Shown here: one piece after another, positions 11,757 to 62,610 of the stretch
Layout of the letters: each line of letters opens with the position of its first letter
Numbering within the stretch: the first letter of the stretch is position 1
Source: Watersipora subatra
Taxonomy: Eukaryota > Bryozoa > Gymnolaemata > Cheilostomatida > Watersiporidae
Reading direction: 5' to 3'
Assembly (NCBI RefSeq): GCF_963576615.1
Contig: NC_088708.1
Coordinates: 66,380,672 to 66,444,671, forward strand
DNA length: 64,000 nt
Program-made: the position numbers and the translations under genes
The notes under the pieces: model-generated
What the model was told of the DNA's origin: nothing
Seen by the model: the letters and a program-made list of their open reading frames with translations, nothing else
The model's database searches: none

Positions 11757-12925
11757 ACAACTTTTTGAGTCTCCAAAGTCACCGAAGAGGTATACCGTTT
11801 GAAAGACTCAGCGGTGCTGCTGGGGGAACAGCACTTGGATACAGCACTGGTGACTTGGATACAGCACTGGCTCCTGGACCGCACATTCTGTGTCATAGTT
11901 AACGGTAAAACATCTCCACCTACCCAGGTAACATCAGGTGTGCCCCAGGGGTCGGTGCTTGGACCCTTGCTTTTTCTTTTATATATCAATGACCTTCCAG
12001 AGTCTCTGAACTGTCCAAAGACATCCATACGTTTATTTGCGGATGATGCCATACTTTTTAGACCAATAGAATGTGCGTCCGACAGCCTTCTGCTACAGGA
12101 CCAACTGTGCAGAGTGGCTGCATGGGCTGAGTCGTGGCAGTTGAGATTTAATGCTAATAAATGCACATCTACATCTGTGGAACCAGTTAGATTTTCACAT
12201 ATATACAACTATTGCGGTACATCTCTTATATCCTCGCAATCCTTTTTATACTTGGGTATACTTGTTTCTAGCACCCTCAATTTTAATGAACACATAAATC
12301 GCATCATACGTAAGGCTAACGGCACTCTTTTTATGCTTATGCGGACCCTTAAGAAAACATCTCCTAATGTCAAAAGGACAGCATACTATAGTGTGTGTCG
12401 TCCACTGCTAGAGTACGCTTCGGAAATCTGGAGTCCACATTTTGATTATAGTATACAAGATTTAGAGTCCATTAACCGAAAAGCTTTTAGGTGGGCCAAC
12501 AATTTAAGAAAATTTGATAGTATATCATCAGAAATGGTGAAAATGGGATGGCAAACACTTGCAGAGAGAAGACGCATCAAGGACGAAAGCACACTGCAAA
12601 AAATTTTAAGCCAAGACCTAATGGTCGATTTTAATAGATTTGTAATTAAGAACTCATCCTATTTTACTCGAGGCTCCAATATCAGACACACAATCAATAC
12701 AAGTGCAATGAAACACTCTTTTTTTAACCGTGCGATGAAATTTTAACATCTGATTCTCTTATAACTAGACCAAGCGATCTTATACTTTTATCCTTCAGTC
12801 TTAGATAAATAAGTCTATGCTTATTTGTGATCTTATTTTTATGCCTAATGCACCATTTTATTTCTACAGGCCTAGCGGCCACTTGAAATATTTTACAGAG
12901 ATAGATAGAGATAGATAGAAAAGTG
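11757..12925 (+). mobile_element. 5'-truncated non-LTR retrotransposon (jockey/CR1-like)
   Basis: Reverse-transcriptase coding sequence begins mid-domain right beside the Tigger-like MITE and runs to a TAA at 12744. About 150 bp of 3' UTR follow, ending in a short GATA/GATAGA repeat (12896-12920). 5' truncation and a simple-sequence 3' tail are usual for this class. No endonuclease domain is present, and no target-site duplication was identified. Confidence 0.75.
11799..12746 (+). pseudogene. Reverse transcriptase, C-terminal portion
   Basis: The 315-codon open frame holds SGVPQGSVLGPLLFLLYIND (about residues 46-65) and the catalytic box FADD (residues 80-83). Thumb-region sequence follows, with FLYLGILVSS and YYSVCRPLLEYASEIWSPH. 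This order is that of jockey/CR1-group retrotransposons. The N-terminal fingers and endonuclease are absent. The segment TTGGATACAGCACTGG is duplicated just upstream of the conserved core. Because the copy is truncated, it is a dead insertion even though this frame is intact. Confidence 0.85.
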
Positions 12926-19194: not shown

Positions 19195-22100
19195 ATGTCG
19201 AAACCCAAAAAAAGACGGTTTGAGCCAGGTATGTTTGGAATAATTTCGTTCGTCGGTGGCTCATTTTCACGAATGCTGCTAAAAAGTCTTGGTACCACAT
19301 TGCAAGCAGTATTTATGTCTGCTGCTAACACACTTTATAAAATAACTATATATATATATGTATGTCACCAGGTAAAGTCGACAGCCTTGTTGATGTGGTA
19401 ATTAAAGTATATTTTGCTCTTCATGTTCATGATTGTTCTGCTCTTAAAAAGAAGGTACAAGACCTCACTTGCGAGGTGTTGGCTTCTTGTGTGGTTCCTG
19501 CCGTTTGTTGTTTTCTCCTATAGAATATCGCCTTTCACAGTGAACTATTTATTCTTGTGTAGTGGGTTAATTGGCTCAAACTGCTGACTTCTAGTGCACC
19601 CCAGCTATAGTTCATCCAACACAACACAGATATGATCAATCAGTATTGATGACTGGTTTCGTTATTTTTAATAGCTGAAATTGATAAGTAGAGGTAGAGA
19701 CTGTGCTAGTAAATTAAGGAGACTAGTTGACCAATACTGTCAACCCAGGCTATTATAGTTTGGATACCAGAACAAGAACTATCGTAATGACTGCTCTTTG
19801 TGTAACGGTTTACACTATTTGTCCTTGGAACAAAAAGCCCAATGTTACTAAACTTAGCATTATGGCATGATGTCATGATTGTACTGTTACCAAAGGTGAA
19901 TTTGTGCTGCTGCTATTAGGTCAGCGGAGAATTGTTCTCTCCTTACAGATGCTGCCTTCTTTGAGCAGGGTAGTATTATATGTCGTCTGCTCCAGGAGAC
20001 GCTCGTACCTTTGAGCTCGCTGAAGTCTGATGGAGTTGTTATGGATGAAGATGTGCAAGTGATAGACTGTCAGCTGCAGGGTTGTTATCAACAGTTTTCT
20101 TCATTGTACAGGTTAGCTTTTGTTGGTGGTGTTAGCTTAATTCCTTCATATTCTTTTTGCGCCTTATGAAGTCTCATTCCATGAGTTCTACTGCTATCAA
20201 ACATTTTCACCTTCACTAAAGGCTCAAGCATCTGCTGAGTTAGACAGTATTAGACTTTTTAAGCAAGTGAAATTCAATCCTGTACAGATCTAGGTGTTTT
20301 GTTCTATTTCTACTTCGTTCTACTATAAATATTAAATTGACATTCTTAATTTTAGCATTCTAAGCATTGTGTTATTTCTTTTTAAACTTGACGCCAAGAC
20401 TGGTCGTGCTACTAGCGTATTGCCTTTGCCTAACTTTGAATTTAAAAAATTTTTCAGTTCAAATAATTTTAGGCATTAATAGAGCAAGAAAAAATTATTT
20501 TATACAAGTAAAAATTTAATATGACCACCTGGTTTTGGCAGTGTTTAATATTGTAAAACTTCCAGTAAATTTTATTTAGCAAATTTTGTGCTTTTTCACA
20601 TGACAAAATAATCCTAAATTTTACTACAGAGAAAGAATGTGCAGGATTTTTTCTCAACATTATGCGTAGTTTTACCTTGAGTACGCTATCAATTTATCGT
20701 TAATTCTAAATTGATGAATAAATATTTTGGTAGTAGGCTCCAATTTCACTTTGCTGCCTAAGGTTGCCACTAACTATATTAGGTCATTTGGTAGTTATTC
20801 AATTGTTCTGTGGCTAGGAGCTGCAGTAGAATAGTTGTTTTAAAGCATTTTTGACAAGTGTAGAAATTGCCTCCACCCACAAACACAGAAGTTTGTGAAA
20901 ACAACTCCTCTTAATCATCAGGATTGTTTCTTTGCTTCTTCCTGGCAAGTTTTCACAATAATTTCTTCACCCTAACATATCGAATGTAAATTACGTATAA
21001 ATTGTGCCAATTATTGCCTATCTAACACAAATTCTAGACTCCTTAACTATTAATACATATTTCTGCCACCAATCACCCAGTTCTATCACTAATCATGCCT
21101 CAACATTTTACGGAATGAATGTGGTTTGTTGGAAATTTCCTTCATCGTATATTCAGATGAAGAAGGCAATATCTATTTGTATGTCAACCGAGTTTTTAGA
21201 CGTGTTGTAGGCACTAGGTTCATCTTATAGCATGCTAACTCACTTTATCTTCTAACTCATGGTAAGGTAGGTAGGTAGGTAGGTAAGGTTCTCTGTTAAA
21301 GTGAGCTACTTTGAAAATGAAGTATTTATAAGAAATAGTAACTGTATACGTATTTATTTTTAGTTATGAAGAACATTATGCCACGAGACATCGGAATGTC
21401 TGCCGAGAGTGTGGAAAGATTTTACCGACTACAAGACTTTTAGATCTTCACATCGATGAGCTGCACAACCCTCTGTTCGATATGCAGTCTAAAAAGTCAC
21501 CAATGGTTGGTTTTTGATGTTTCCCAAGTCTATGCAGTAGCAAGGAAAGCTAATGTTCTTCTTTATCATAGACATCGCTGAGGTAACTTGGTTGAATGAG
21601 GTAGCGGTGTCCCCTCTGCAATGTTCATATATGCGCCTAGCTTTTTAGTTTCAGTGTCTTATCTCTGGCTGTGCAGAGACATTCATGTCATCCAAGATTA
21701 GGAGAAAACATCTGATAGAAGTGCACAAATATCCATCATCCTTTCGATTTGAGAGAGCAGCACTATCAAAATGGTAAGACAGTAGGACTATGTTGCTGTA
21801 TTAGATGCTTCACTTGCAATCTGCCTGCATGCATTTTAGATAGTAATACCATTCGTTGCTTGCATAATTGAAGTAAGACATCACAGAAGAATAAGAAAGA
21901 TGATAAGAGTTCAGAGAAAATGGACATAACCAGCCAGAATAACTCGTCTCAGGGATCTAGATACAAATACAATTGCAAGTATGTTCTAAAATTGCTCGGA
22001 TACTGCCATATAGAATATAATAAAGGGAGAGCCTCAAATGATTGTAGCAATTACTACAGAGCTATCATTTAGTCCCATAAACAGTGGTTTATTTGGCCTA

Positions 22101-23793
22101 TCGATGCTACAGACTTTGGAGGCCTGGTGTTTAGGGCCAGCGTTGGTATGATCGTAGATGTATGACAAAGTCAGTACTTCGTACATTTTGAGAAATTTAT
22201 GTATAGAATATAGAATATAATAAAGGGAGAGCCTCAAATGATTGTAGCAATTACTACAGAGCTATCATTTAGTCCCATAAACAGTGGTTTATTTGGCCTA
22301 TCGATGCTACAGACTTTGGAGGCCTGGTGTTTAGGGCCAGCGTTGGTATGATCATAGATGTATGACAAAGTCAGTACTTCGTACATTTTGAGAAATTTCA
22401 ATTTACATCTGCAGAGGTATACAGCTGAATAACATTTACTGCTTCGAAGTCCCTACCAAAAAATAAATAATTATCATTGTTTTTATATATAGTGTTATTG
22501 TCAAAATAACACATCCTCATTGTGTTATTTGGAAACACTTTGTTTTTCTCCAAAGTGCTGCCAGCTGGAACATTTAGTTTAAAATCTTATCACAAATGTG
22601 TGTTGTGGGCTGTAACAAAGGTCTGCTATTTTGGTTATTATGAAGAATCTCACAATTTCATTTTTGCCAAATTGTGCTAAAGACATCCCATTTGCATTGG
22701 ATATGAATGAATTTTATATCAGCAATACCTAATTGCGCATTTTATGTCAATTGAGAAATAGCTGCAGTAACACAAATGGTCACAGTAGAGTGTTATAAAA
22801 ATCTACATCATGCTCTAAAATGTGAATAAAAAGTTTTTTTTATCTATAACTATTTATTATTTGCCATGTATGAAGGCAAACTCGTTTCATTTGCTGTTGG
22901 TCAGTTCAAGTAAAAGGGCCATTTACCAGAATGTTCTTAACTCAGGTATCAAGCAGGTTGTGGCAATAAGGGTTAATCTGATGATACGCGTCGTGTGACT
23001 CAAATCAGTTAGGAGATGGAACTCCTACCAGGTTTTCAATTCAAAAGTGGAAGGTGTACATAATTCATGCTTTATATGCAACTGAGTGCAACTACCAAAC
23101 ACTTGGCTTGTAAGTTAATAAAAGCCATGATTACTGTAGCCAAGTTTGTTATACACATCTATGTACACTTGCATGTATGTAAACTCACAAAATATAAATG
23201 TCTTACGACTTCATGATGGAAAGTGTGGCAGTTGTCTGCTAGTAATAACTGATATTTTGTATGCATTTATGCTAAGTATGTACTCATCAAATTTGTATTG
23301 CTAATATGCACAATATATCAAAAGAATGTGTTTATACGTGATAAATGCTGTTTCTAAAATTCCTGCATGGGAGAGAACTAGTATAAATTTCTGTTTCATT
23401 TAATATAAAACCACCAAACACTGCCTGATGGACAATTGAGTTTAGTCATCAGCTAGTCTGGTGCAGAGAATTGAGACTGAAGCTATAATCGGAGTAGCGT
23501 ATTGAGTCTCAGCTAAGCCAGTAAATGACGAGAATTGAAGTTGAATTGAATATTTTTATCTTTCCTCATGACTCGAGCGTAGGCATGAAAAAGTTAGTGC
23601 GCACGCTCAATGAGTAATATTTCCTTTCAGAGTCCCAGCTTCCTTTTCCTTCGGTCAGGGAGTACAAAAAGGTTTCGTGAGACGAAAACGACCTAAGGGC
23701 AATCACTTAATAAAGATGGGAGCTGTTCAATCACAGAATGTTACTATTGAAGACGTTGACATGAAAGATCTGGCTACGGCTTTAGAACAGTAA
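19195..23793 (+). CDS. ZNF511: Zinc finger protein 511, six exons, 243 aa
   Basis: Exons are 19195-19228, 19949-20111, 21364-21505, 21649-21773, 21874-21978 and 23631-23793; all junctions keep phase. The protein starts MSKPKKRRFEP, then FFEQGS (human ZNF511 has a similar FFEDG). Three C2H2 fingers follow: C52/C57/H70/H75, C79/C82/H95/H100 and C116/C121/H134/H139. FRFERA comes after finger 3, then a Lys/Ser-rich segment, then SFSFGQGVQKGF, matching the FGQGAARGF near the end of human ZNF511. Length is close to the human protein. The family is conserved in animals and its molecular role is poorly defined, presumably nuclear. Exon 5's acceptor (TTGAAG|T) is the least certain, chosen because other AGs give an immediate stop. 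Candidate poly(A) signals AATAAA lie at 24173 and 24331. It is convergent with ARCN1. Confidence 0.9.
21264..21290. repeat. (AGGT)n microsatellite
   Basis: A short perfect run of GTAG/AGGT units in ZNF511 intron 2, about 70 bp upstream of exon 3. Confidence 0.9.
22011..22398. repeat. Tandem duplication, period 200 bp, two copies
   Basis: 22011-22198 and 22211-22398 are the same except for one base (G at 22154, A at 22354). A 12-bp junction containing ATAGAATAT lies between them. It sits in ZNF511 intron 5. Near identity implies a recent duplication. Confidence 0.95.
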
Positions 23794-40916: not shown

Positions 40917-41539
40917 ACACGTATGCTAATCTGTAGCCTCACATTTAAAATATGATCTCCATACCGGTGTAGAACATAGATTAGTGTGGTGAAAATAAGG
41001 AACTATGGCATAGAAGGTGTACATGTACCTGTCAGATGAGGCATTAACTCAAAATAAACAGCCAAGTACTGAGACTCAAATAATTTATTTCTATATTTTA
41101 ATTTGTTACAGCCATTAATTTCCTCACACCCTCTTTTGACCACCCTCTTTTTATGACGTTGCTGTAACAATCTGTTACATCTTCATTTTTAAAGTCATAA
41201 AGTTGAATGATTGTAATAGTATGGGTACTACTTCTAAATAAACTGAGATTAAAATCTCCTTGTCAAAGTATTTGCATGAAGATTACTTTGGAAGGAAATA
41301 AAAATTAAAACGACCATCACACCCAGAATGCATTACACACTAGATATAAATATAGAATTTCATTGTTTGAGTTCATGATAGAGAAGCCAGTTTTAGGCTA
41401 GGCAACTTAGGTTAGCTGTTGCATTAAATAATTTCAACTACAACAGTCATTAGCTAAAAGCTGATATCATGAGTCCCTCTGCTCCTTACTGCGTTGATAA
41501 GCCATTTTCTTTTCATTTCATGACAATGGTTTATGTCAT

Positions 41540-44500
41540 TTACAAGTTGGGCGTCTCATAGTTGTCTCCTGTGATTAGGTTAGAGTATCTGTGAGATGAA
41601 TCTGTAGCAGTCAGATATTCTGCATCTAAATGGCAGCCGTAATGAATATTGTTATGGTTAGGTGAATACTGTGATAACAATTGCACGCATAAACTTATTT
41701 ATTAAAAACACTCCAACACTAAAAAATAGAAAATGGACGAAGATAAGTATTAATTACCTTGAGTCGGTAAACCGGTCACTGGTATTTCTGATTGGCTTAC
41801 GCCTCTGGTTATTTGAGGTTGGCTCACCCTTGGAAGCGCAGACTGTGGTAATAATGGTGGCACTGGTGCTATGCTAGTAGAAGTACCTGTTAAAACAGTG
41901 AAAAGGAGTATAGCTCACTTTTTCTCATCTGACCTTCACAAGAACTGATCAAATAGCACTGGTAAAAATCTATCAGTTTAATAAAAATTCCGACTGCTTT
42001 TAGTAATTTTGTAGCAAAATTATTGGCCGATTCTTTTTCTCCCAATACATTTCCCTCTTTCTCTCTCCCTCTTTTCCTTCTCTTGTTTTCTTCCTTTATC
42101 TCTCTCTTACTTTCTTTCTCCCTTCTCTTCTCTCACCCCTCTTTCTTAACCCCTCCTTTTTAACTTCCTTCTCGCTCTCCTCTCTCACTTGCTTTGTTTC
42201 TCTCCTTTTTTACGCCTTCTCTCACCCCCAACTTTCACCCTTTGCTTTCTCACCCCATCTCTCTCATCCTTTTCCCTGTTTTTTTCAGTTTTAAACTAAC
42301 AATCTCAATAACATACAAAAAAGATTTTGCACTCACTACTCACCTTCTCGAGTCAGTTGATGCATTGTTAAGTACTCATAGTTGCCCTTCTCTTTTGTAC
42401 TTTTTCGGCTTAGTAAGATTATGTATACTACAATAGCTATTAGGACTGCTACCAACAAAGCAATGACTAAAAGCAAAGGAAGGAGCCAAGCTGGTGCTTT
42501 CCACGTTGTTGTAGGTGTTGTTGTAGCTACCTCTATTGAAGAATTAAAATCATTAAAACATTGGCAGCTTGTAGTGCATTCAGAGACAGGCGAGACATCC
42601 AATTTCCCGCCGAGATAAAACTGGGGCTGGTCTTTTTCGACGATCACTCCATCATTTACTGAGTATACATGATTGTACAGTGCAGAGTCTTGGGCCTTGA
42701 TGATGTTATATACTTTGTAATTTACTTTACCATCACCAGAAGGTAAATAAGGAAGGTATGATTTAATACTACTGCCCACCTGCTCAGGTACTTTCGTATT
42801 TTGGAGATATCGAAAAAAATTTAAGCGTCCATCAGTTGTGTCAAACAAAGGAGAGCAGTCAATATGCTTATCATTGATAATACATTGATTTTCTCCAAAA
42901 ACTGCTTCACGCAAGGAATATGCAACAGACAGACCAGCGATAACCACTTGCTTTCCTACAACATCTTCATAGTCGAGTTGCGTTAATTCTGCACCTTTTT
43001 TATCCAGACTGTAGTCTTCTTCACACCGTGTTACTTTTGATGGCAGTGAGTTCTGTGGAAGATAGCAGTCAAAATATTGCTGCCAGAAGTGTATGAATGG
43101 GCGATTATCGAGATTGTTGTCTGGTCTTTGCGTGGCTAAATAATTTTTAAAATGGTTGTTACCATTCACAGTCCAAGAATAAGTATCATCACTAAAAGCA
43201 AAAGTGAGGGAGCCATAAACAAACTTTTCAACACCTTCTATCACGTTTGTCAATTTATTCCAACTTTCACTACCAATGAGGATATTTCCTCTCTCGTTCC
43301 ATTGTGGATCAGTTAATTGTATTCTCCGCAAAAAGTCTGCTATTAGTCTTTCCTCTGCGAATATGACAATGACTCTTGGCAGTTCGCTTTTCATCGCAGT
43401 AATTCGAGTGCTATCTGCCAGTTCATTAATAGATTCTTGTGAACCATTGATGATCTTGTGATACGAAACACATATTTCAGCTTTGCTAGCATATTTCAAA
43501 ACAAGGTTGCCTCCTGTTTGGCCGTAAACAGTATTAGACTGAATTAACCCGATATTGCTCCAATCATTCTGCTGCAAGATATCAACCATTAGTCTTGCCT
43601 GTTCTTCATCACTAGGAACCGTTCGCAAAAACATTGGATACCGAAAAGAGTCACTCAACCAGATGCTTGTGCTTCTGTAAGAGATTTGAGGAATGTTGAA
43701 AAGACTAAGGTAGGTTTGCAATACCAGAGACACTCCACTGGATGCATCCCCTATGAATACCACAAAATCGGTTGGTTTGATGGCCCATTCCTTATTATTT
43801 GTATCAGTCAAGTAAGCTGTGTCGGTTTCTCTAAATATGCTACTCATAATAGCCTGTGTGCCTAATGTAGCATAGCAAGTATCAATGAAAAGTGTGCTGA
43901 ATTCCATCCCAGTTATATCGTGAATCTGTTGCACAGCATAGTAAAATGACTCCATCATAATGAATCCATTTGGAGTTACCTCTTGGCCACACTGTAGCTC
44001 GTCCATTATATCAGTAACAGCTGCTGTACCTGCAATTATATAGCGGGAATTTTCATTTCGCCTGTAAATGTATGGAGCTGCTTCTTTTAAACAAGAGTAG
44101 CAGTCTGAGATGCATCTTGAGCTGTATTCAGCAATCATCTGGCCATCGTCATATGTCCATGAATCATTGTGGTGATATAAGCCTATAGGCTGATATGTCC
44201 ATGCCTGTTCTGAATCGGTTGCTAGATTGAGAGTAAATGCTGGAAATCTTTTTTGATTGTCAATGTCACCATTGAGATCATAGCTGAATGCAATGTCCAG
44301 ATCACTTATGTTCGCTTGAATTGATGCCGTCAAAAGGGTGTTCATCATAGCTGAATAAAAGAGAGGGCTGTTGCCAAGGTCTGAACAAAGACCTGGGCCA
44401 CCTTGGCATAAACGGTTCTGTGTCTCTTTAAATGCGTACAACAGAGAAACAATCGAGTCTATAGTTTGTTGAGTCCCATCGGAAGCTTTTAGCAGACTGT

Positions 44501-47440
44501 CTTGTGAGCAGCCTTGGCTTTCGCTACATCTTTGAAGAAACTCTTCTATCAGTGCATCCGTTTTTTTTGCACCAGACCTATTGTCAATTCTTTCTTGAAT
44601 ATAACTCTCCAAAGGGGTTTGCTCATTGTAAGGAGCTAGCGTAAAAAATTCCAGTTCACCATTGCTTGAACTTAACACCTCGAGAAGTTTGGGACTTTTT
44701 CCAACACCTTCGGACGAAAGTATTAATTTCTTATCATCTGCAGAGCGTATAAGATCTAACAGATTTTCCATCAGTGTAATGGCTACAAAAGGTAAGCGAT
44801 AGTCTGATGGTGCTATGAAAACTAAGACAACAGGATAAAGCCATGTGATAAGACTACATCACACAAACTTACCCACTGTTTCAGCTCCAAAGAATATTAC
44901 AGTTCTGGCAGGATCCGATTTGATTTGTTTGCTTATCTCATCGTAGTAGGTTAGAGGATCATCTGACTCTATCTTGACTTCAAGTGTATCAGAAAAACAA
45001 ATTCCTTTCAGCTCAGCATATGAACTAACAGTCTCAGCACCTTTCCTCCCATATTCATCATCTGTGTGCACGAGTAGCACATATGACCACTCAAACTTGA
45101 GTGCTACCTCCACAATTGCCTGTCAGAAACAAACATCCATTGTTCTAATAGCGACGAGTCATATCAAACCATGTACAGAGACTAACTCATCAGATGGATT
45201 GGTTAGTTGTGTATATTGCCATTTTGACTGGCTGTCATCTAGTATTGTTTTTTCTTAGCAACAACAGCTGCTTGAAAATGTCGGCTTTTGGAGCTAAGTT
45301 TAATCAGGGTCAGCTTACAACCAATTTTTTAAACAATAACTTAACTAGTTTGTCGGCCCATGGGCTACAAAGGTGCAGTAGACATCCATCCCTATAATGC
45401 AAATCTCATTTTACATAAATTTCACGTATGTAAATGATATACTATAAGTAAAAATTTTGCGTCGCGTTACAAACAAATTTCGTAAAGCGTCAAGTTGGTG
45501 CAAGCTCTCAAATTCACTTTGAATGACGAGAGTCTCATAGCCTTAAAAGTATGACACTAATTTTCTCATATTTTTTCTCTTGCCGTTTGTGGAAGAGAAA
45601 ACTATGCAAGGTGTATCTAGGTTATATATTATATATATTTATAATATTATATATATCTTCTTACTTTATTTTAGACATGTACATGTACAATCTTTTCTCT
45701 TTGCAGCAAAGACCTGGGTGTAGAGAAACCAAGTTGAAAGAAGTCAATTTAAATTGATATTGAAGGTGTGCTCTCGCCTTAACTTAGCGTAAAGTTACTG
45801 TACATTGTAATTTTCTTGGTTCGTTCCAGAGTCCAAAGAACAATTATTTGAGTAATTGTACCTCAAGGTATGACTGAACAAACCCGAGTTAGTAAGTCGC
45901 AGATCTACTTATTTGGTTTGAAGCATTTTCACCCGTTAAATCTTCTCTACAGCCGAAACATTTATGATGACTTCTTAATTAAGGCCGCCAGTGATTACAA
46001 TGCATCAAATGCATCATATAAAATAATGTAGAATACTACATTATTCAGAAAAAAACTAAATTAATAAAATATTTATTTTCATTGTTACTGTATCTTAGAC
46101 ATATATGAAAGGAAGTGTAGGCTCATCGAAGCTTGGTTCAGATAGAGTGGTATTAGTATAGATTTGTGCCATAGTTCACTCCAACTTCTACTACTACACA
46201 GAATTTCAAATTATATAGCTTATACACTTTCAACTGGGTTTGTATTTTTTTTAATATCATTTTGGCCTTTCCAGCCTCTCCAGTTTTACTCACAAAACTG
46301 TAATGTTTTAAAAAACTTCATGCAGTGTTTGATGAAAATACCTTACGGTGTCGAGTCTAATATCTGCTAGCATTCTACATTGTCGTTTGGAAAATTTGTA
46401 CGTTATGGCAACCTCAAGTAGAGGTTTGAGTGTATCTGCTATTCTTGAACTGTTTTCTAACAGAGTTTTCTTGTAATATTTGTTCTCTTGACAAAACAGT
46501 TTCACTCTGCAAAGGATCTGTGAAGCTGCTGGCATAATTTGACTAAAAAAATAGCAAACAGGCAAGAGTCTACCTTGCTTTGTTTTTCATCAGAAATGGC
46601 GGTTCTAAAAAGAGAATTGTACTTCTGCTTGTCACTCAGTTCAGCTAGAGTAGCGGATGGCGTTATCAGAGGAATATTTGTGTTGTTGAGAAACTCTGCT
46701 GCATATTTGGCATTTGAAGAGTAGGCTGGCCCTATGAATCCTTCAAAAGAAAAACTGGAAAATAATCATATTTTCAATCAAACCATCGTATGAACTGGCA
46801 TTGTATGACCTGTTATTGCGTATTAATCGAAGCCTACAGAAATAGTATTTTGGTTTGCATTCTAAGAGTTGTGCTAGGAGTTATATTTGTAATATCTAGC
46901 CTCAAGAATAGAGACGTTTTTGATAACGTTTCAATCCACATTCAGGTTTCAAGCACTGCAACCTTGTAACTTGATACAAGGTTTTTCAGATTACAGTGAG
47001 TACAGGTTTGTTGGCAGCCAAGAACATCAGCTGTGAATTAGAAAAAAAGTTTACCAACTAAAGCCAAATATATTGCATGGTCTCACGGTATATTTGTTGG
47101 TACTTGTTCACGTCTTTTAGCAATTGTCAGCAGTCTTATTTGAACAACTGCAAGTTTGATGTTCTTTGGTAAATTTACTCGCACAGAAGTCATTTTTATC
47201 TGCCATTCATATTGTAAATATAAATGGCAAAAAATATGTCTTTCCGATATGCTTTTCCAACACGTCCATATGTCCAGTCTAGTATATCTTGAAAACATCG
47301 GACATAATACAGGTTGAAAAGACCTGGTGTAATGCAGCATGGAAATACCTACCGCAATCTGGCATGAAAACATGTAAGTATAACTAGAGATATAATTTTA
47401 TTTCATCCTAGTTATACTTACTATAATAGAGAATAGGTTC

Positions 47441-47498
<58 letters not shown>

Positions 47499-50400
47499 GG
47501 TCAATAGAAAAGGGAATAGCTATACCTATAGGTAACTAGTTATAGTTTATTCCCATTTTCTATAGACCTCACTAGCGGCTATCATTGCATCATACTTGAG
47601 ATGTGCATTTTAAAGACAATCAACAGAAATATTTTTCTGACTGAATAAGGTGAATGCATTTAACCTTCCACGATTGCATAGCAGCTGCACAGTCAAGCAT
47701 GGCAAGTACAACACAGTCAAGCATGGCAAGTACAACACAGTCAAGCATGGCAAGTACAACACAGTCAAGCATGGCAAGTACAACACAGTCAAGCATGGCA
47801 AGTACAACACAGTCAAGCATGGCAAGTACAACACAGTCAAGCATGACAAGTACAACACAGTCAAGCATGACAAGTACAACACAGTCAAGCATGGCAAGTA
47901 CAACACAGTCAAGCATGACAAGTACAACACAGTCAAGCATGGCAAGTACAACACAGTCAAGCATGGCAAGTGCAACACAGTCAAGCATGGCAAGCACAAC
48001 ACAGTCAAGCATGGCAAGTACAACACAGTCAAGCATGACAAGTACAACACAGTCAAGCATGACAAGTACAACACAGTCAAGCATGGCAAGTACAACACAG
48101 TCAAGCATGGCAAGTACAACACAGTCAAGCATGGCAAGTACAACACAGTCAAGCATGGCAAGTACAACACAGTCAAGCATGGCAAGTACAACACAGTCAA
48201 GCATGGCAAGTACAACACAGTCAAGCATGGCAAGTACAACACAGTCAAGCATGGCAAGTACAACACAGTCAAGCATGGCAAGCACAACACAGTCAAGCAT
48301 GGCAAGTACAACACAGTCAAGCATGACAAGTACAACACAGTCAAGCATGACAAGTACAACACAGTCAAGCATGGCAAGTACAACACAGTCAAGCATGGCA
48401 AGTACAACACAGTCAAGCATGGCAAGTACAACACAGTCAAGCATGGCAAGTACAACACAGTCAAGCATGGCAAGCTCAACACAGAAAAAGCGTTGCAGAC
48501 TTTCTGAACTTTGTATCTGAAGAACATAACCAGTCTGACTCAGTTTAAACTGTTTAGGTTAACTGAGTTAATGAGTTTAGTTATTTAGTCAATTCTCTGC
48601 TTGCCAAGTGCAATGGGAAAGCAGCTTGAATCATGACAGCACTGCTTTAAACATCAGGTTACATTCGATGAATTACTGGTGTTTACCTAGCAGTAGGGAT
48701 CCTTGCTCTGTCATGTTTTGTGTCTCATGCAGGCATACACGCTGCTCAGTCCAAACTGACTCTGGTATACTCAGAGCAGCTTTTCTGGTGGCAAAACTTC
48801 TATTTCTGCAAATATTCTCAAGCACGAAGTCTGAAAAAAAGCATTTTAGCAATTAATTATGTCAACTTTCATGCTATTACATTTCAAATGTTGCTTTTAC
48901 TGCAGTCACTGAGAAATTTTTTTATTTATCTGTTACCCAAATAACAAGCTCATAACTGTACCAGAATTCAAAATATCAGTTATACTTTGTACAGCCTGTG
49001 CAAAAGCATGAGAAGAGACCTGAGGAGACTAAATGACTTTCCAAACTAAACCCTAATACAGTACTAAGTTTCCATTTAGCTATAGTGTAGTGACACGGTG
49101 CACCTGGTGCGTCAGTGCCAAAGTGCTTTGTCCGGCCGACAAGCAAGTCATGTTTCATATGGTGCTATAGTAGAACGATGGTTACGTGACGCCTCGTGTT
49201 AACGTTTCACCTTTTTGAAGTTTCAATAAAATTATTCTTGGCTAGCAATTTCGACGTCTTTATATACAAACCTAAGTTTTAGTGCCTTCTGCTAACTAAG
49301 ATTCTGTAAGTGTCGTACTCAGTCAGGTAGTCAAGGGATGTTTCGATTTCAGGGTTGGTTCATACAGCCTACTCTTCTACCATTTTCGGTTTCAAGTAAA
49401 AACAGATAGGTTGAAGACTTCAACAACAAAAGTTTCTGTATATGAAACAACATGAAAGCAAGACCATGCGCTCGCAACTGCGACCCCGTTGGTCGCTAAG
49501 GCCATTTCCATGGCATAAAGATGGCGCATGATATGGGCGGTTTGCTTTCAAACAGTAACGCTGAATCAAGGGAGAATCAGGGTGGCACGGCTGTTTCCAT
49601 GATGACATTTCAGCGCCATATGGGGATGTGTCGCTACGCTATTGCTTTATGAAAACTTCTCCACAACTTGGGAGAAAATTTCTGTTCTCAAATGTCAGGT
49701 AACTTATTCCAATCTACTTGTCAACCGAATCATGTCATCTGGTCTCGAAACTACAGATGGACTTTATAATCAATTCTAAAGGGCACATTACAGGTACTAG
49801 CAAGTACCTACCATACTGTACGCCTGGCACAGAAAGCGCAGAGTTTGTGCCATTTACTAAGTCTATGATGTATTCCGCTGCTAGCGCCAATGACAACCCA
49901 AATATTGATAGATCTTCATTAGCATCACATGTCGAGGTTGGGGATATTTCAAGTAGTCCCACAATATGCACTCTGTTTATGGGATCTGAGCCTACAACAA
50001 ATTAAAAACTGGCTTACCGGAAATGTAGCGGGATTGATTGCAGCACATCAGCTTCACGAAGTTTTTAAATTTTTCAGTAGTAGAAACAAATTCTATCAAG
50101 ATGTAAAAAAGTAAATATAAACAATGGATATACAAGGTATCATTGGCAGCTGCATAAGCTATGTAAAGGAAACATTGGAGTTTATCGAAAAGACATTGAG
50201 TGTTCAGAAATGACCTGTTCTTTGCTCGAGCATAGCTTATAGGCAACAGGGTCTACAAAAAACTTGTGCAGAAATGACCACAAAATGAACACCGCTGTTC
50301 AAAGAGAAAAGTTCTTACGCTTACCTAACACTGCCTCTCACCCTATTATTAGCCTTTGCTCTTAACTTATTGGTATTAGTTAGCGTTTTTAGAGAAGGCT

Positions 50401-50797
50401 GAGATTGTTTATATAAGGCTTAAGTGGAACACTAATAATTTTATAGACACTGAAAGATGTGGAGCGATACGTGAAGTAGCCATCTTGTCTGTCCCCAAAA
50501 CTTTTTTGTAGATTGTCTATACACTTATATCTTGTTATCATTCTGAAAACCCTCCTGTCATGCTTGTTAATGCTTTGTAGCTGATATGGTGACTGAAAAT
50601 ATTCTTTTTATACAGTTAGCTCAAAATGGGTTAACATTTTAGCAGCCAATGGGAGCAGCCGCTCGGAGTTGATTTCACAAAATGGCTTTTAGTAATTTAT
50701 CAAGCATTTAGAACTTACCAGAACACGGCGCTGTTGCCTCAGCTGATCGCATATCCTGTATCACTAGAAAAACAAGTAAAATAAAATACCAAGCCAT
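41540..50797 (-). CDS. Single-pass receptor with tandem Venus-flytrap domains and tyrosine-motif tail, eight exons, 1169 aa
   Basis: Exons are 50719-50797, 49812-49991, 48687-48830, 46574-46740, 44873-45119, 42344-44821, 41758-41886 and 41540-41625; every junction keeps phase. Residues 1-19 (MAWYFILLVFLVIQDMRSA) form a signal peptide. VFT domain 1 (about 28-510) has VHIVGLLEISP, GFIGPAYSSNAKYAAEFL, PSATLAELSDK and HTDDEYGRKGAE. Domain 2 (about 530-1000) has FIGDASSGVSLVLQ, RSTSIWLSD, FLRTVPSDEEQA and VYGQTGG. Both carry the class C receptor/ANF-receptor signatures. PVSECTTSC near the end recalls the class C PxSxCSxxC linker. One transmembrane helix (about 1051-1076) and a 93-residue tail follow. 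No 7TM, guanylate cyclase or kinase domain follows; a stop ends exon 8 at 41540. Tail motifs are Y1089LTM, Y1155SNL, Y1164ETP and PVPPLLP. It is probably a ligand receptor signalling through SH2 proteins (inference). A poly(A) signal may lie at 41084-41089. Confidence 0.88.
42040..42290. repeat. Pyrimidine-rich tract in a receptor intron
   Basis: Almost unbroken C/T runs (CTCTCTCCCTC, CTTCTCTCACCCC) on the plus strand. It lies just downstream of the TM exon in transcript order, so the RNA is purine-rich. A similar tract lies at about 51570-51760. Confidence 0.85.
47444..47499. repeat. (TAA)n microsatellite
   Basis: About 17 uninterrupted ATA/TAA units in the receptor intron, bordering a dispersed repeat copy. 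Confidence 0.95.
47500..47691. repeat. Dispersed repeat, copy A
   Basis: CTCACTAGCGGCTATCATTG through GATTGCATAGCAGCTGCACAG closely matches 51112-51258 in the same orientation. The copy runs straight into the 24-bp minisatellite. Its inner part (AATAGAAAAGGGAATAGC... and the inverse) forms a hairpin. Confidence 0.8.
47692..48486. repeat. Minisatellite, 24-bp unit, about 33 copies
   Basis: The unit is CAGTCAAGCATGGCAAGTAC plus AACA. Main variants are GGCAAG/GACAAG and TACAAC/CACAAC. The pattern of variants around the CACAAC unit at about 47983 recurs at about 48271, exactly 12 units later, so a block was duplicated. It lies in the receptor intron between exons 48687-48830 and 46574-46740. Since 24 is a multiple of three and the unit has few stop words, four frames stay open over 850 bp; none is part of the receptor. 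Confidence 0.97.
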
Positions 50798-52374
50798 GAC
50801 TGCCACACTTCCTCGATGAAGCGGCAACTTGTGAATGTTGATATTTACTATAACGATGTGTCACAGATATCAATCACAACACCAGATATCTCGAACCTGT
50901 CACATTGCATCACCACTTTGTGACACGATGGCTATGGCAAGCAGCTTGATTCACGGTGGCTAACTAAATATCAACGATATGCAGTTCATTGCACTGGATT
51001 GAATAGAAATAATTCTTTTAAAAGGAAGCAAACATTCTTAACAAACCATAGTTGAAAAGGGTGAGTCACGTTAACACTCCATGGCTTTTACAAGCGCCAG
51101 GCAGGGAAGGGGATAATTCCCTTTGCTATTGGCCTTACTAGTGGCTATCATTGCATCATCCTTGAGATGTGCATTTAAAGACAATCAACAGAAATATTCC
51201 TTTAACTGACCAAAGGGAATGCAATTAACCTTCCGTGATTGCATAGCAGCTTCACAGAAGCATATAGGCTTTTTTATTGGCAGTGGATTCCCGAAAATTT
51301 GTAGATTTGCTAAACTCCTTAAGAGCTTACTGAAACACTGAACTTTCAAGTCTTAACTATGTGTACAACATCGCTTTTTCACTTGTTGGTGGAAAACTTG
51401 CTAATGAGGAAGTCAGATCAAGAAAATAATTATTATCAGCACAAATTGAAAACATCTCCACAATTACTATCTTAACTAATCAATTGTGGAAAGTCAACCT
51501 ATTCCATTGTAAGACCACACCGTTTTTTTTGTTCACTACGATGGCAATATTTTAGAATTTTTTTCCATTCATTCGCCTTACACTTCCCCTCCTATTGTTT
51601 TCTGTCCCTCTCTCTTATTCTCATTGCCCAATTCTAGTATTCCTTCCTAAAACTGCTTCTCTTTCTCTCATGACTATTTTCTTTTTCCTATCATTTTCTT
51701 TCACTAACATTTCTTTTCCCCCCTCCCCTACCTCTTTCTTTGCCCATCTCTCATTGTTCATTCCCTGTTCAAATATTAATATGCCAAATATGAAAGCTGA
51801 GGGTGCTTTTGCAGACGTATCATGATATTGACCATGACATCATATTACCGATCTATTAAAGATAGACAATATAGATTTAGATGTAATACTATAGATCTAA
51901 ATTTAGACCAATAGATCTAAATCTATATTGTTTATCTATAGATCTATAAACTATAGACAATAGATTTATTTTTATAGTCACCAACTAGCTTCAACAGTGA
52001 CCCACTATCTTAATGTAATAGGCACAAATTGAGGGCAAGATTCTTGAGAAATCTCTATAAAACAGAGACCATGTGGTGTTTGTATTTAAAAAAACGAAAG
52101 GAGCTCGACAATATAACAATTATTGACAATTGAAGTAAAAGAAGCAATACTACTTGCATCTTGCTTTTTTGAGTAGCATAGACCATAAATTATTCATCAA
52201 CAAGAGAAATAAATGGTGAAAAGATCAACGATATACTGGCATTTCTGGAAATGCTGGGCAGCAAATAAACAAGTTCTAAGATGAGTGAAACTACAAAGAG
52301 AATAGCATGGGGTTCGCAGTAAACATAATTAGCTGCAAAACAGAGCGAAAAGAGTCAAAAACAGAGGTAGAAAA
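50798..52374. other. Intergenic region between the receptor and HDAC3
   Basis: This is the receptor promoter side and the HDAC3 3' UTR. It contains dispersed repeat copy B (51112-51258), a pyrimidine-rich tract (51570-51760) and repeated TAGATCTAAATC/TATAGAC words at 51850-51970. AATAAA on the minus strand at 51965-51970 is a candidate HDAC3 poly(A) signal. No gene seen. Confidence 0.6.
51112..51258. repeat. Dispersed repeat, copy B
   Basis: It has the same order of words as copy A: GTGGCTATCATTGCATCAT, GAGATGTGCATTTAAAGACA and GATTGCATAGCAGCTTCACAG. Flanks differ, so this is a mobile or duplicated unit of unknown class. Confidence 0.8.

Positions 52375-62610
<10,236 letters not shown>

What the first reader, a model, noticed from the sequence alone, without database searches (positions are those of the whole stretch)
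41540..50797. Receptor with two tandem Venus-flytrap domains, one TM helix and no 7TM or kinase domain
Eight exons join in phase into one 1169-residue protein: signal peptide, VFT, VFT, a PxSxC..C linker remnant, a single TM and a short tail. Class C GPCRs have one VFT plus 7TM, natriuretic receptors have one VFT plus TM plus cyclase, and Venus kinase receptors have one VFT plus TM plus kinase. A dual-VFT, single-pass, enzyme-free receptor is an architecture I do not know as a named family.
Basis: partly seen in the sequence, partly recalled or inferred. Interest (0 to 1): 0.85.

Follow-up and report, generated by a model that had tools for sequence, protein, structure and literature searches.

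The report
Single-pass receptor with two flytrap domains
What looks like an animal gene encodes a cell-surface receptor with two amino-acid-sensing "Venus flytrap" domains in a row, one membrane anchor and no enzyme or seven-helix part, an arrangement for which I found no named family and whose tail may recruit signalling proteins through phosphorylated tyrosines.

Summary
Eight minus-strand exons join in phase into signal peptide, VFT1, VFT2, stalk, one TM and a short tail. One 2.4-kb open exon carries the back of VFT1, all of VFT2, the TM and the start of the tail, so that linkage does not depend on splicing. Corrections: I get 1166 residues, not 1169, and a better acceptor (44782) gives 1156. 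Both VFTs are of the class C GPCR type and end in the S-x-C-x-x-x-C start of an otherwise missing cysteine-rich domain. Both keep four of five mGlu1 amino-acid contacts (the fifth is E in VFT2), but not the Arg78 that reads glutamate. VFT2 keeps a hydrophobic helix-C face; VFT1 has a glycosylation sequon there. Three of five tail tyrosines lie in YxxM, YxN and YxxP. No 7TM, kinase or cyclase match in the next 7.5 kb. Best reading: a two-sensor, single-pass amino-acid receptor signalling through recruited tyrosine kinases and adaptors; ligand and coupling are inferred. No transcripts or eukaryote collections were available, so expression and taxonomic spread are untested.

The parts
50719..50797 (-). 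Exon 1: start codon (G at -3 and +4) and likely signal peptide MAWYFILLVFLVIQDMRSAEA
   Evidence: splice and translation; signal peptide by eye
49812..49991 (-). Exon 2: start of VFT1 lobe 1
   Evidence: aligned to T1R3
48687..48830 (-). Exon 3: VFT1 lobe 1
   Evidence: donor rank 42 of 630
46574..46740 (-). Exon 4: VFT1, FIGPAYSS...ITPSATLAELSD (contact residues S142, T165, D185; sequon N153-N154-T155 in helix C)
   Evidence: acceptor 46740 keeps phase, 46754 does not
44873..45119 (-). Exon 5: VFT1 lobe 2, Y213 and lobe-2 cysteine C231
42344..44782 (-). Exon 6 (acceptor 44782 preferred; 44812 also keeps phase): VFT1 C-half, SxCxxxCxxC, whole VFT2, PxSxCxxxCxC, stalk, TM, start of tail in one open frame
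42549..44081 (-). VFT2 with its linker cysteines (residues 507-1017 of the 1156-aa model): class C GPCR type, contacts S621, T644, D664, Y692, E778
   Evidence: Pfam 8e-32; mGluR4 8.3e-31 with alignment
42399..42488 (-). Single TM helix with following RKS (residues 1038-1067)
   Evidence: hydropathy up to 3.5; 10-residue pLDDT means 86-95 in an otherwise poor AF2 model
41758..41886 (-). Exon 7: proline-rich part of the cytoplasmic tail
41540..41625 (-). Exon 8: tail end with AEYLTAT, HRYSNLI, NYETPNL and TAA stop
41084..41089 (-). AATAAA, possible polyadenylation signal about 450 bp after the stop
   Evidence: pattern only; such sites are frequent in this AT-rich region

Best explanation
An animal single-pass receptor with two class C GPCR-type Venus flytraps. 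Shown from sequence: the order VFT1-VFT2-stalk-TM-tail, amino-acid-type contact residues in both VFTs, no Arg78 equivalent in either, and no enzyme or 7TM match. Inferred: VFT2 makes the usual lobe-1 homodimer next to the membrane and VFT1 sits outside as a second sensor; an amino acid or amino-acid-like ligand closes the flytraps and resets the dimer as in mGluRs and Venus kinase receptors; instead of an own kinase, the tail is phosphorylated by a cytoplasmic tyrosine kinase and its YxxM, YxN and YxxP sites recruit SH2 proteins (PI3K-, GRB2- and CRK-type), as cytokine and ITAM receptors do. Ligand, dimer and kinase coupling are not shown.
For: Gene model in phase; two ANF_receptor stretches. 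VFT2 aligns with mGluR4 through the first cysteines of its cysteine-rich domain, VFT1 with T1R3. The mGlu1 S165/T188/D208/Y236 positions are identical in VFT2 (printed alignment with mGluR4; transfer from mGluR4 to mGlu1 numbering recalled) and in VFT1 (same columns as VFT2); D318 is E in VFT2. PMC2680970 (passages) uses these five residues and reports L-arginine activation of a VKR. The Arg78 position is M548 in VFT2 and L61 in VFT1; in mGluR class IV Arg78 and Lys409 are replaced and a fly member did not respond to glutamate (PMC6307864, passages). VFT2 helix C reads TYLSLF, VFT1 EFLNNT with a sequon. Three distinct SH2-type motif classes in the tail are reached by 0.41% of 20,000 tail shuffles (motifs chosen after seeing the tail).
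Against: No homologue was available, so conservation of the tail tyrosines is untested. Short tyrosine motifs arise easily: the looser count (4 of 5 Y) is reached by 3.5% of shuffles. The fifth contact in VFT1 (E297) rests on my reading of a motif; MAFFT and HMMER align that stretch otherwise. A lysine near the Lys409 position of VFT2 is one column off, so its loss is not certain. The AF2 model was poor (mean pLDDT 36.3), so fold, interface and disulphides could not be checked.
Confidence: 0.45

Rival explanations
1. A 7TM-less partner subunit: it pairs through VFT2 with a true class C GPCR and tunes its ligand response, the tail serving trafficking only.
For: VFT2 keeps a hydrophobic helix-C face and the first cysteines of the cysteine-rich domain; GABAB is an obligate heterodimer of two subunits (PMC12499500, start of abstract in the listing).
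Against: Only the start of the cysteine-rich domain is present, which in mGluR/CaSR dimers passes the signal on (recalled); three SH2-type motif classes in the tail are more than most shuffles give.
Confidence: 0.2
2. A clearance, uptake or decoy receptor like NPR-C: it binds an amino-acid-like ligand or peptide and removes it, tail tyrosines being endocytic Yxx-phi signals.
For: Enzyme-free single-pass VFT receptor like NPR-C (recalled); YSNL, YEYL and YLTM of the tail fit Yxx-phi (motif recalled).
Against: YETP and the proline-rich stretch go beyond sorting signals; the PDB rows shown are mGluR, CaSR and T1R chains, no natriuretic receptor (60 of 124 matches shown, 60 of 176, 52 of 52 at E up to 1e-14).
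Confidence: 0.15
3. Gene-model artefact or decayed gene: the true transcript differs in the N-terminal exons or the tail, or the locus is a pseudogene cut off from a 7TM part.
For: No transcripts; two mediocre donors; exons 1, 7 and 8 are not covered by any homology match; several tandem or dispersed repeats lie in the introns.
Against: 2.4-kb open exon; the junctions of exons 2/3, 3/4, 4/5 and 5/6 fall in ungapped stretches of the T1R3 alignment; no 7TM match in three minus-strand frames of 34.0-41.5 kb (unspliced frames, so a 7TM broken by introns could be missed).
Confidence: 0.12

Closest known systems
Class C GPCRs (mGluR, CaSR, T1R)
   Same: VFT type, amino-acid contact residues, start of the cysteine-rich domain
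   Different: Two VFTs in one chain; cysteine-rich domain cut to its first cysteines; no 7TM
Venus kinase receptors
   Same: VFT plus single TM; amino-acid contact residues (PMC2680970, PMC3703292, passages)
   Different: One VFT and an own tyrosine kinase there; two VFTs and no kinase match here. The VKR VFT is reported close to GABAB
Trypanosomatid receptor adenylate cyclases
   Same: Two VFTs followed by one TM (PMC6027212, passages)
   Different: Cytoplasmic cyclase, protozoan; sequence relation not tested
NPR-C (natriuretic clearance receptor; recalled)
   Same: Enzyme-free, single-pass, short tail
   Different: One VFT of another type
Ionotropic glutamate receptors (recalled)
   Same: Two bilobed domains in one chain
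   Different: The second is of another fold class and split by a channel pore

Membership tests
Class C GPCR (glutamate family) | VFT (ANF_receptor) ligand domain | tested here: met
Class C GPCR (glutamate family) | 7TM domain (PF00003) | tested here: not met
   no match in the protein at E up to 0.1 nor in three unspliced minus-strand frames of 34.0-41.5 kb at E up to 1
Class C GPCR (glutamate family) | Cysteine-rich domain (NCD3G) after the VFT | tested here: not met
   no Pfam match at E up to 0.1; only SxCxxxC remains
Venus kinase receptor | Intracellular tyrosine kinase domain | tested here: not met
   no match
Venus kinase receptor | One VFT with conserved amino-acid contacts | tested here: not met
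   contacts present, but two VFTs
Receptor guanylate/adenylate cyclase | Cytoplasmic cyclase domain | tested here: not met
   no match
NPR-C-type clearance receptor | Single natriuretic-receptor-type VFT with short tail | tested here: not met
   two VFTs; PDB rows shown are mGluR, CaSR and T1R
Tyrosine-motif (cytokine/ITAM-like) signalling receptor | Tail tyrosines phosphorylated and bound by SH2 proteins | not testable with these tools
   motifs only
mGluR class IV | Amino-acid backbone contacts kept, Arg78 and Lys409 replaced | tested here: inconclusive
   contacts kept, Arg78 position M548 (VFT2) and L61 (VFT1); Lys409 position unsettled; no tree made

The most novel reading that the evidence does not exclude
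A separate class of animal receptor: two amino-acid flytraps in tandem read two ligands (or one ligand over a wide range) and drive phosphotyrosine signalling through recruited kinases and SH2 adaptors, a route by which the class C ligand module was coupled to tyrosine signalling without fusing to a kinase.
Probability: 0.35. Interest if true: 0.75.

Novelty: new variant of a known kind. Interest (0 to 1): 0.52.

Why it matters
If real and conserved, it would be a further way, besides 7TM, kinase and cyclase fusions, in which cells use the flytrap ligand module, with two sensors on one chain, and would make testable how amino-acid sensing was wired to phosphotyrosine signalling in animals.

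Tried and rejected
Rejected: exon-3 and exon-4 borders that break the frame; acceptor 44812 as preferred site, because 44782 fits the family better. Further VFT genes in the window by tblastn: none convincing outside this gene, the lowest E being 0.26 over 31 residues. Relatives in viral contigs: no pattern hit; in genome contigs: 11 stretches matched a pattern, 0 were relatives. Those collections are of viruses and of bacteria and archaea, so this says nothing about spread among animals. No whole genome is held. Pfam scans of unspliced frames also gave sub-threshold matches that I take as chance: WH_GDS1 0.048, S1FA 0.097, Cypo_polyhedrin 0.015 and Gp44_C 0.083. The other parts of the window were not scanned with Pfam. 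The species is not identified; neighbouring coatomer delta and HDAC3-like genes suggest an animal by inference, and the phylum was not tested.

Full report
Gene model. The gene lies on the minus strand. Exons 50797-50719, 49991-49812, 48830-48687, 46740-46574, 45119-44873, 44812 or 44782 to 42344, 41886-41758 and 41625-41540 join in phase without internal stops. The longer form has 1166 residues, the shorter 1156. I prefer the shorter: it removes a 10-residue insertion and raises the VFT1 score from 102.8 to 108.4 bits on PF01094 and from 80.8 to 86.2 bits on the best PDB chain. Residue numbers below follow the 1156 form. Exon 6 sits in an 840-codon open frame, against a 195-codon maximum in 50 mononucleotide shuffles of the window. 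It encodes the second half of VFT1, all of VFT2, the stalk, the TM and the first part of the tail, so the order VFT1(C-half)-VFT2-TM needs no splicing argument. Exons 1, 7 and 8 rest on splice sites and phase alone.

Domains. Pfam finds ANF_receptor in two stretches (1.9e-61). VFT2 matches mGluR4 (8.3e-31, 110.4 bits) from its N-terminal cysteine to the first cysteines of the cysteine-rich domain. VFT1 matches T1R3 best (2.2e-23). The two VFTs are 31% identical over 179 residues by BLASTP and 23% over the whole alignment, so the pair is not a recent copy; VFT1 is split by introns while VFT2 lies in one exon. Both units end in S-x-C-x-x-x-C (C496, C500 and C1008, C1012), each with a third cysteine (C503, C1014), and both keep a lobe-2 cysteine (C231, C710) of the kind that in mGluRs pairs with the cysteine-rich domain (pairing recalled). 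Each unit thus has four cysteines for a reduced linker; this is inference. There is no NCD3G, 7TM, kinase or cyclase match in the protein, and none in three unspliced minus-strand frames of 34.0-41.5 kb; a domain broken by introns could be missed there. The next gene found upstream is HDAC3-like, downstream coatomer delta, both on the same strand.

Ligand site. PMC2680970 (passages) names Ser165, Thr188, Asp208, Tyr236 and Asp318 of mGlu1 as the main amino-acid contacts. In VFT2 these positions are S621, T644, D664, Y692 and E778 by the printed alignment with mGluR4 (transfer from mGluR4 to mGlu1 numbering recalled). In VFT1, S142, T165, D185 and Y213 share columns with the first four. E297 is my motif reading only; the alignments place that stretch differently. 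The Arg78 position is M548 in VFT2 and L61 in VFT1. A lysine near the Lys409 position of VFT2 is one column off, so that position is open. PMC6307864 (passages) reports replacement of Arg78 and Lys409 in mGluR class IV, of which a fly member did not respond to glutamate. I infer an amino acid or amino-acid-like ligand other than glutamate.

Dimer face. The helix-C stretch that mGluRs use for dimer contact (recalled) reads TYLSLFNIP in VFT2 and EFLNNTNIP in VFT1, with the sequon N153-N154-T155. PMC2680970 notes that no VKR sequon lies in the proposed dimer face. I infer VFT2 as the dimerising unit and VFT1 as an outer sensor.

Tail. The last 94 residues, counted from the end of the TM helix, hold five tyrosines in NYEYLTM, AEYLTAT, HRYSNLI and NYETPNL, plus a proline-rich stretch. 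YxxM, YxN and YxxP are the recalled docking motifs of PI3K, GRB2 and CRK SH2 domains. All three classes appear in 0.41% of 20,000 tail shuffles, and the looser count of 4 of 5 tyrosines in 3.5%; I chose the motifs after looking.

Structure. AF2 on residues 507-1085 as a single sequence gave mean pLDDT 36.3; only the TM helix is confident. Nothing about fold or interface can be drawn from it.

Comparison and novelty. Among the rows listed by nine paper searches I saw no dual-VFT, single-pass, enzyme-free animal receptor. Several lists were cut (20 of 52; 30 of 9,482), the library lacks most subscription papers, and searches used 'ANF receptor', which misses the underscore spelling searched. The nearest precedent is the trypanosomatid receptor cyclase with two VFTs and one TM (PMC6027212, passages). 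PMC3703292 reports no vkr gene in the sponge Amphimedon (passage). The eLife 2025 survey picked glutamate receptors by the 7TM profile PF00003 (PMC12716839, passage), so receptors like this one would be missed by such screens. With no eukaryote collection held, a plain possibility stays open: proteins like this may be common and unannotated in some phylum.

Verdict. It is a new variant of the VFT-receptor kind and fails a defining feature of the class C GPCR, Venus kinase receptor, receptor cyclase and NPR-C families tested; the mGluR class IV likeness is inconclusive. The signalling model is reasoned, not shown.

Noticed in passing
47688-48484: 33-copy, 24-bp tandem array (97% matches) inside intron 3 of the receptor gene.
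   Followed up: partly
47548-47692 and 51114-51257: Two copies, 85-86% alike, of a dispersed element, one in intron 3 and one about 0.3 kb upstream of the start codon; possibly a short mobile element near the promoter.
   Followed up: no
11769-12743 (+): 325-residue open frame that reads like a non-LTR retrotransposon reverse transcriptase (named by eye, no search).
   Followed up: no
22008-22398: Two 200-bp tandem copies at 99% matches, a recent local duplication.
   Followed up: no
60326-60694: 21-bp tandem array, 17.6 copies, open in several frames.
   Followed up: no
about 55.2-58.2 kb (-) and about 25.3-32.4 kb (-): HDAC3-like and coatomer delta-like genes flank the receptor on the same strand.
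   Followed up: partly
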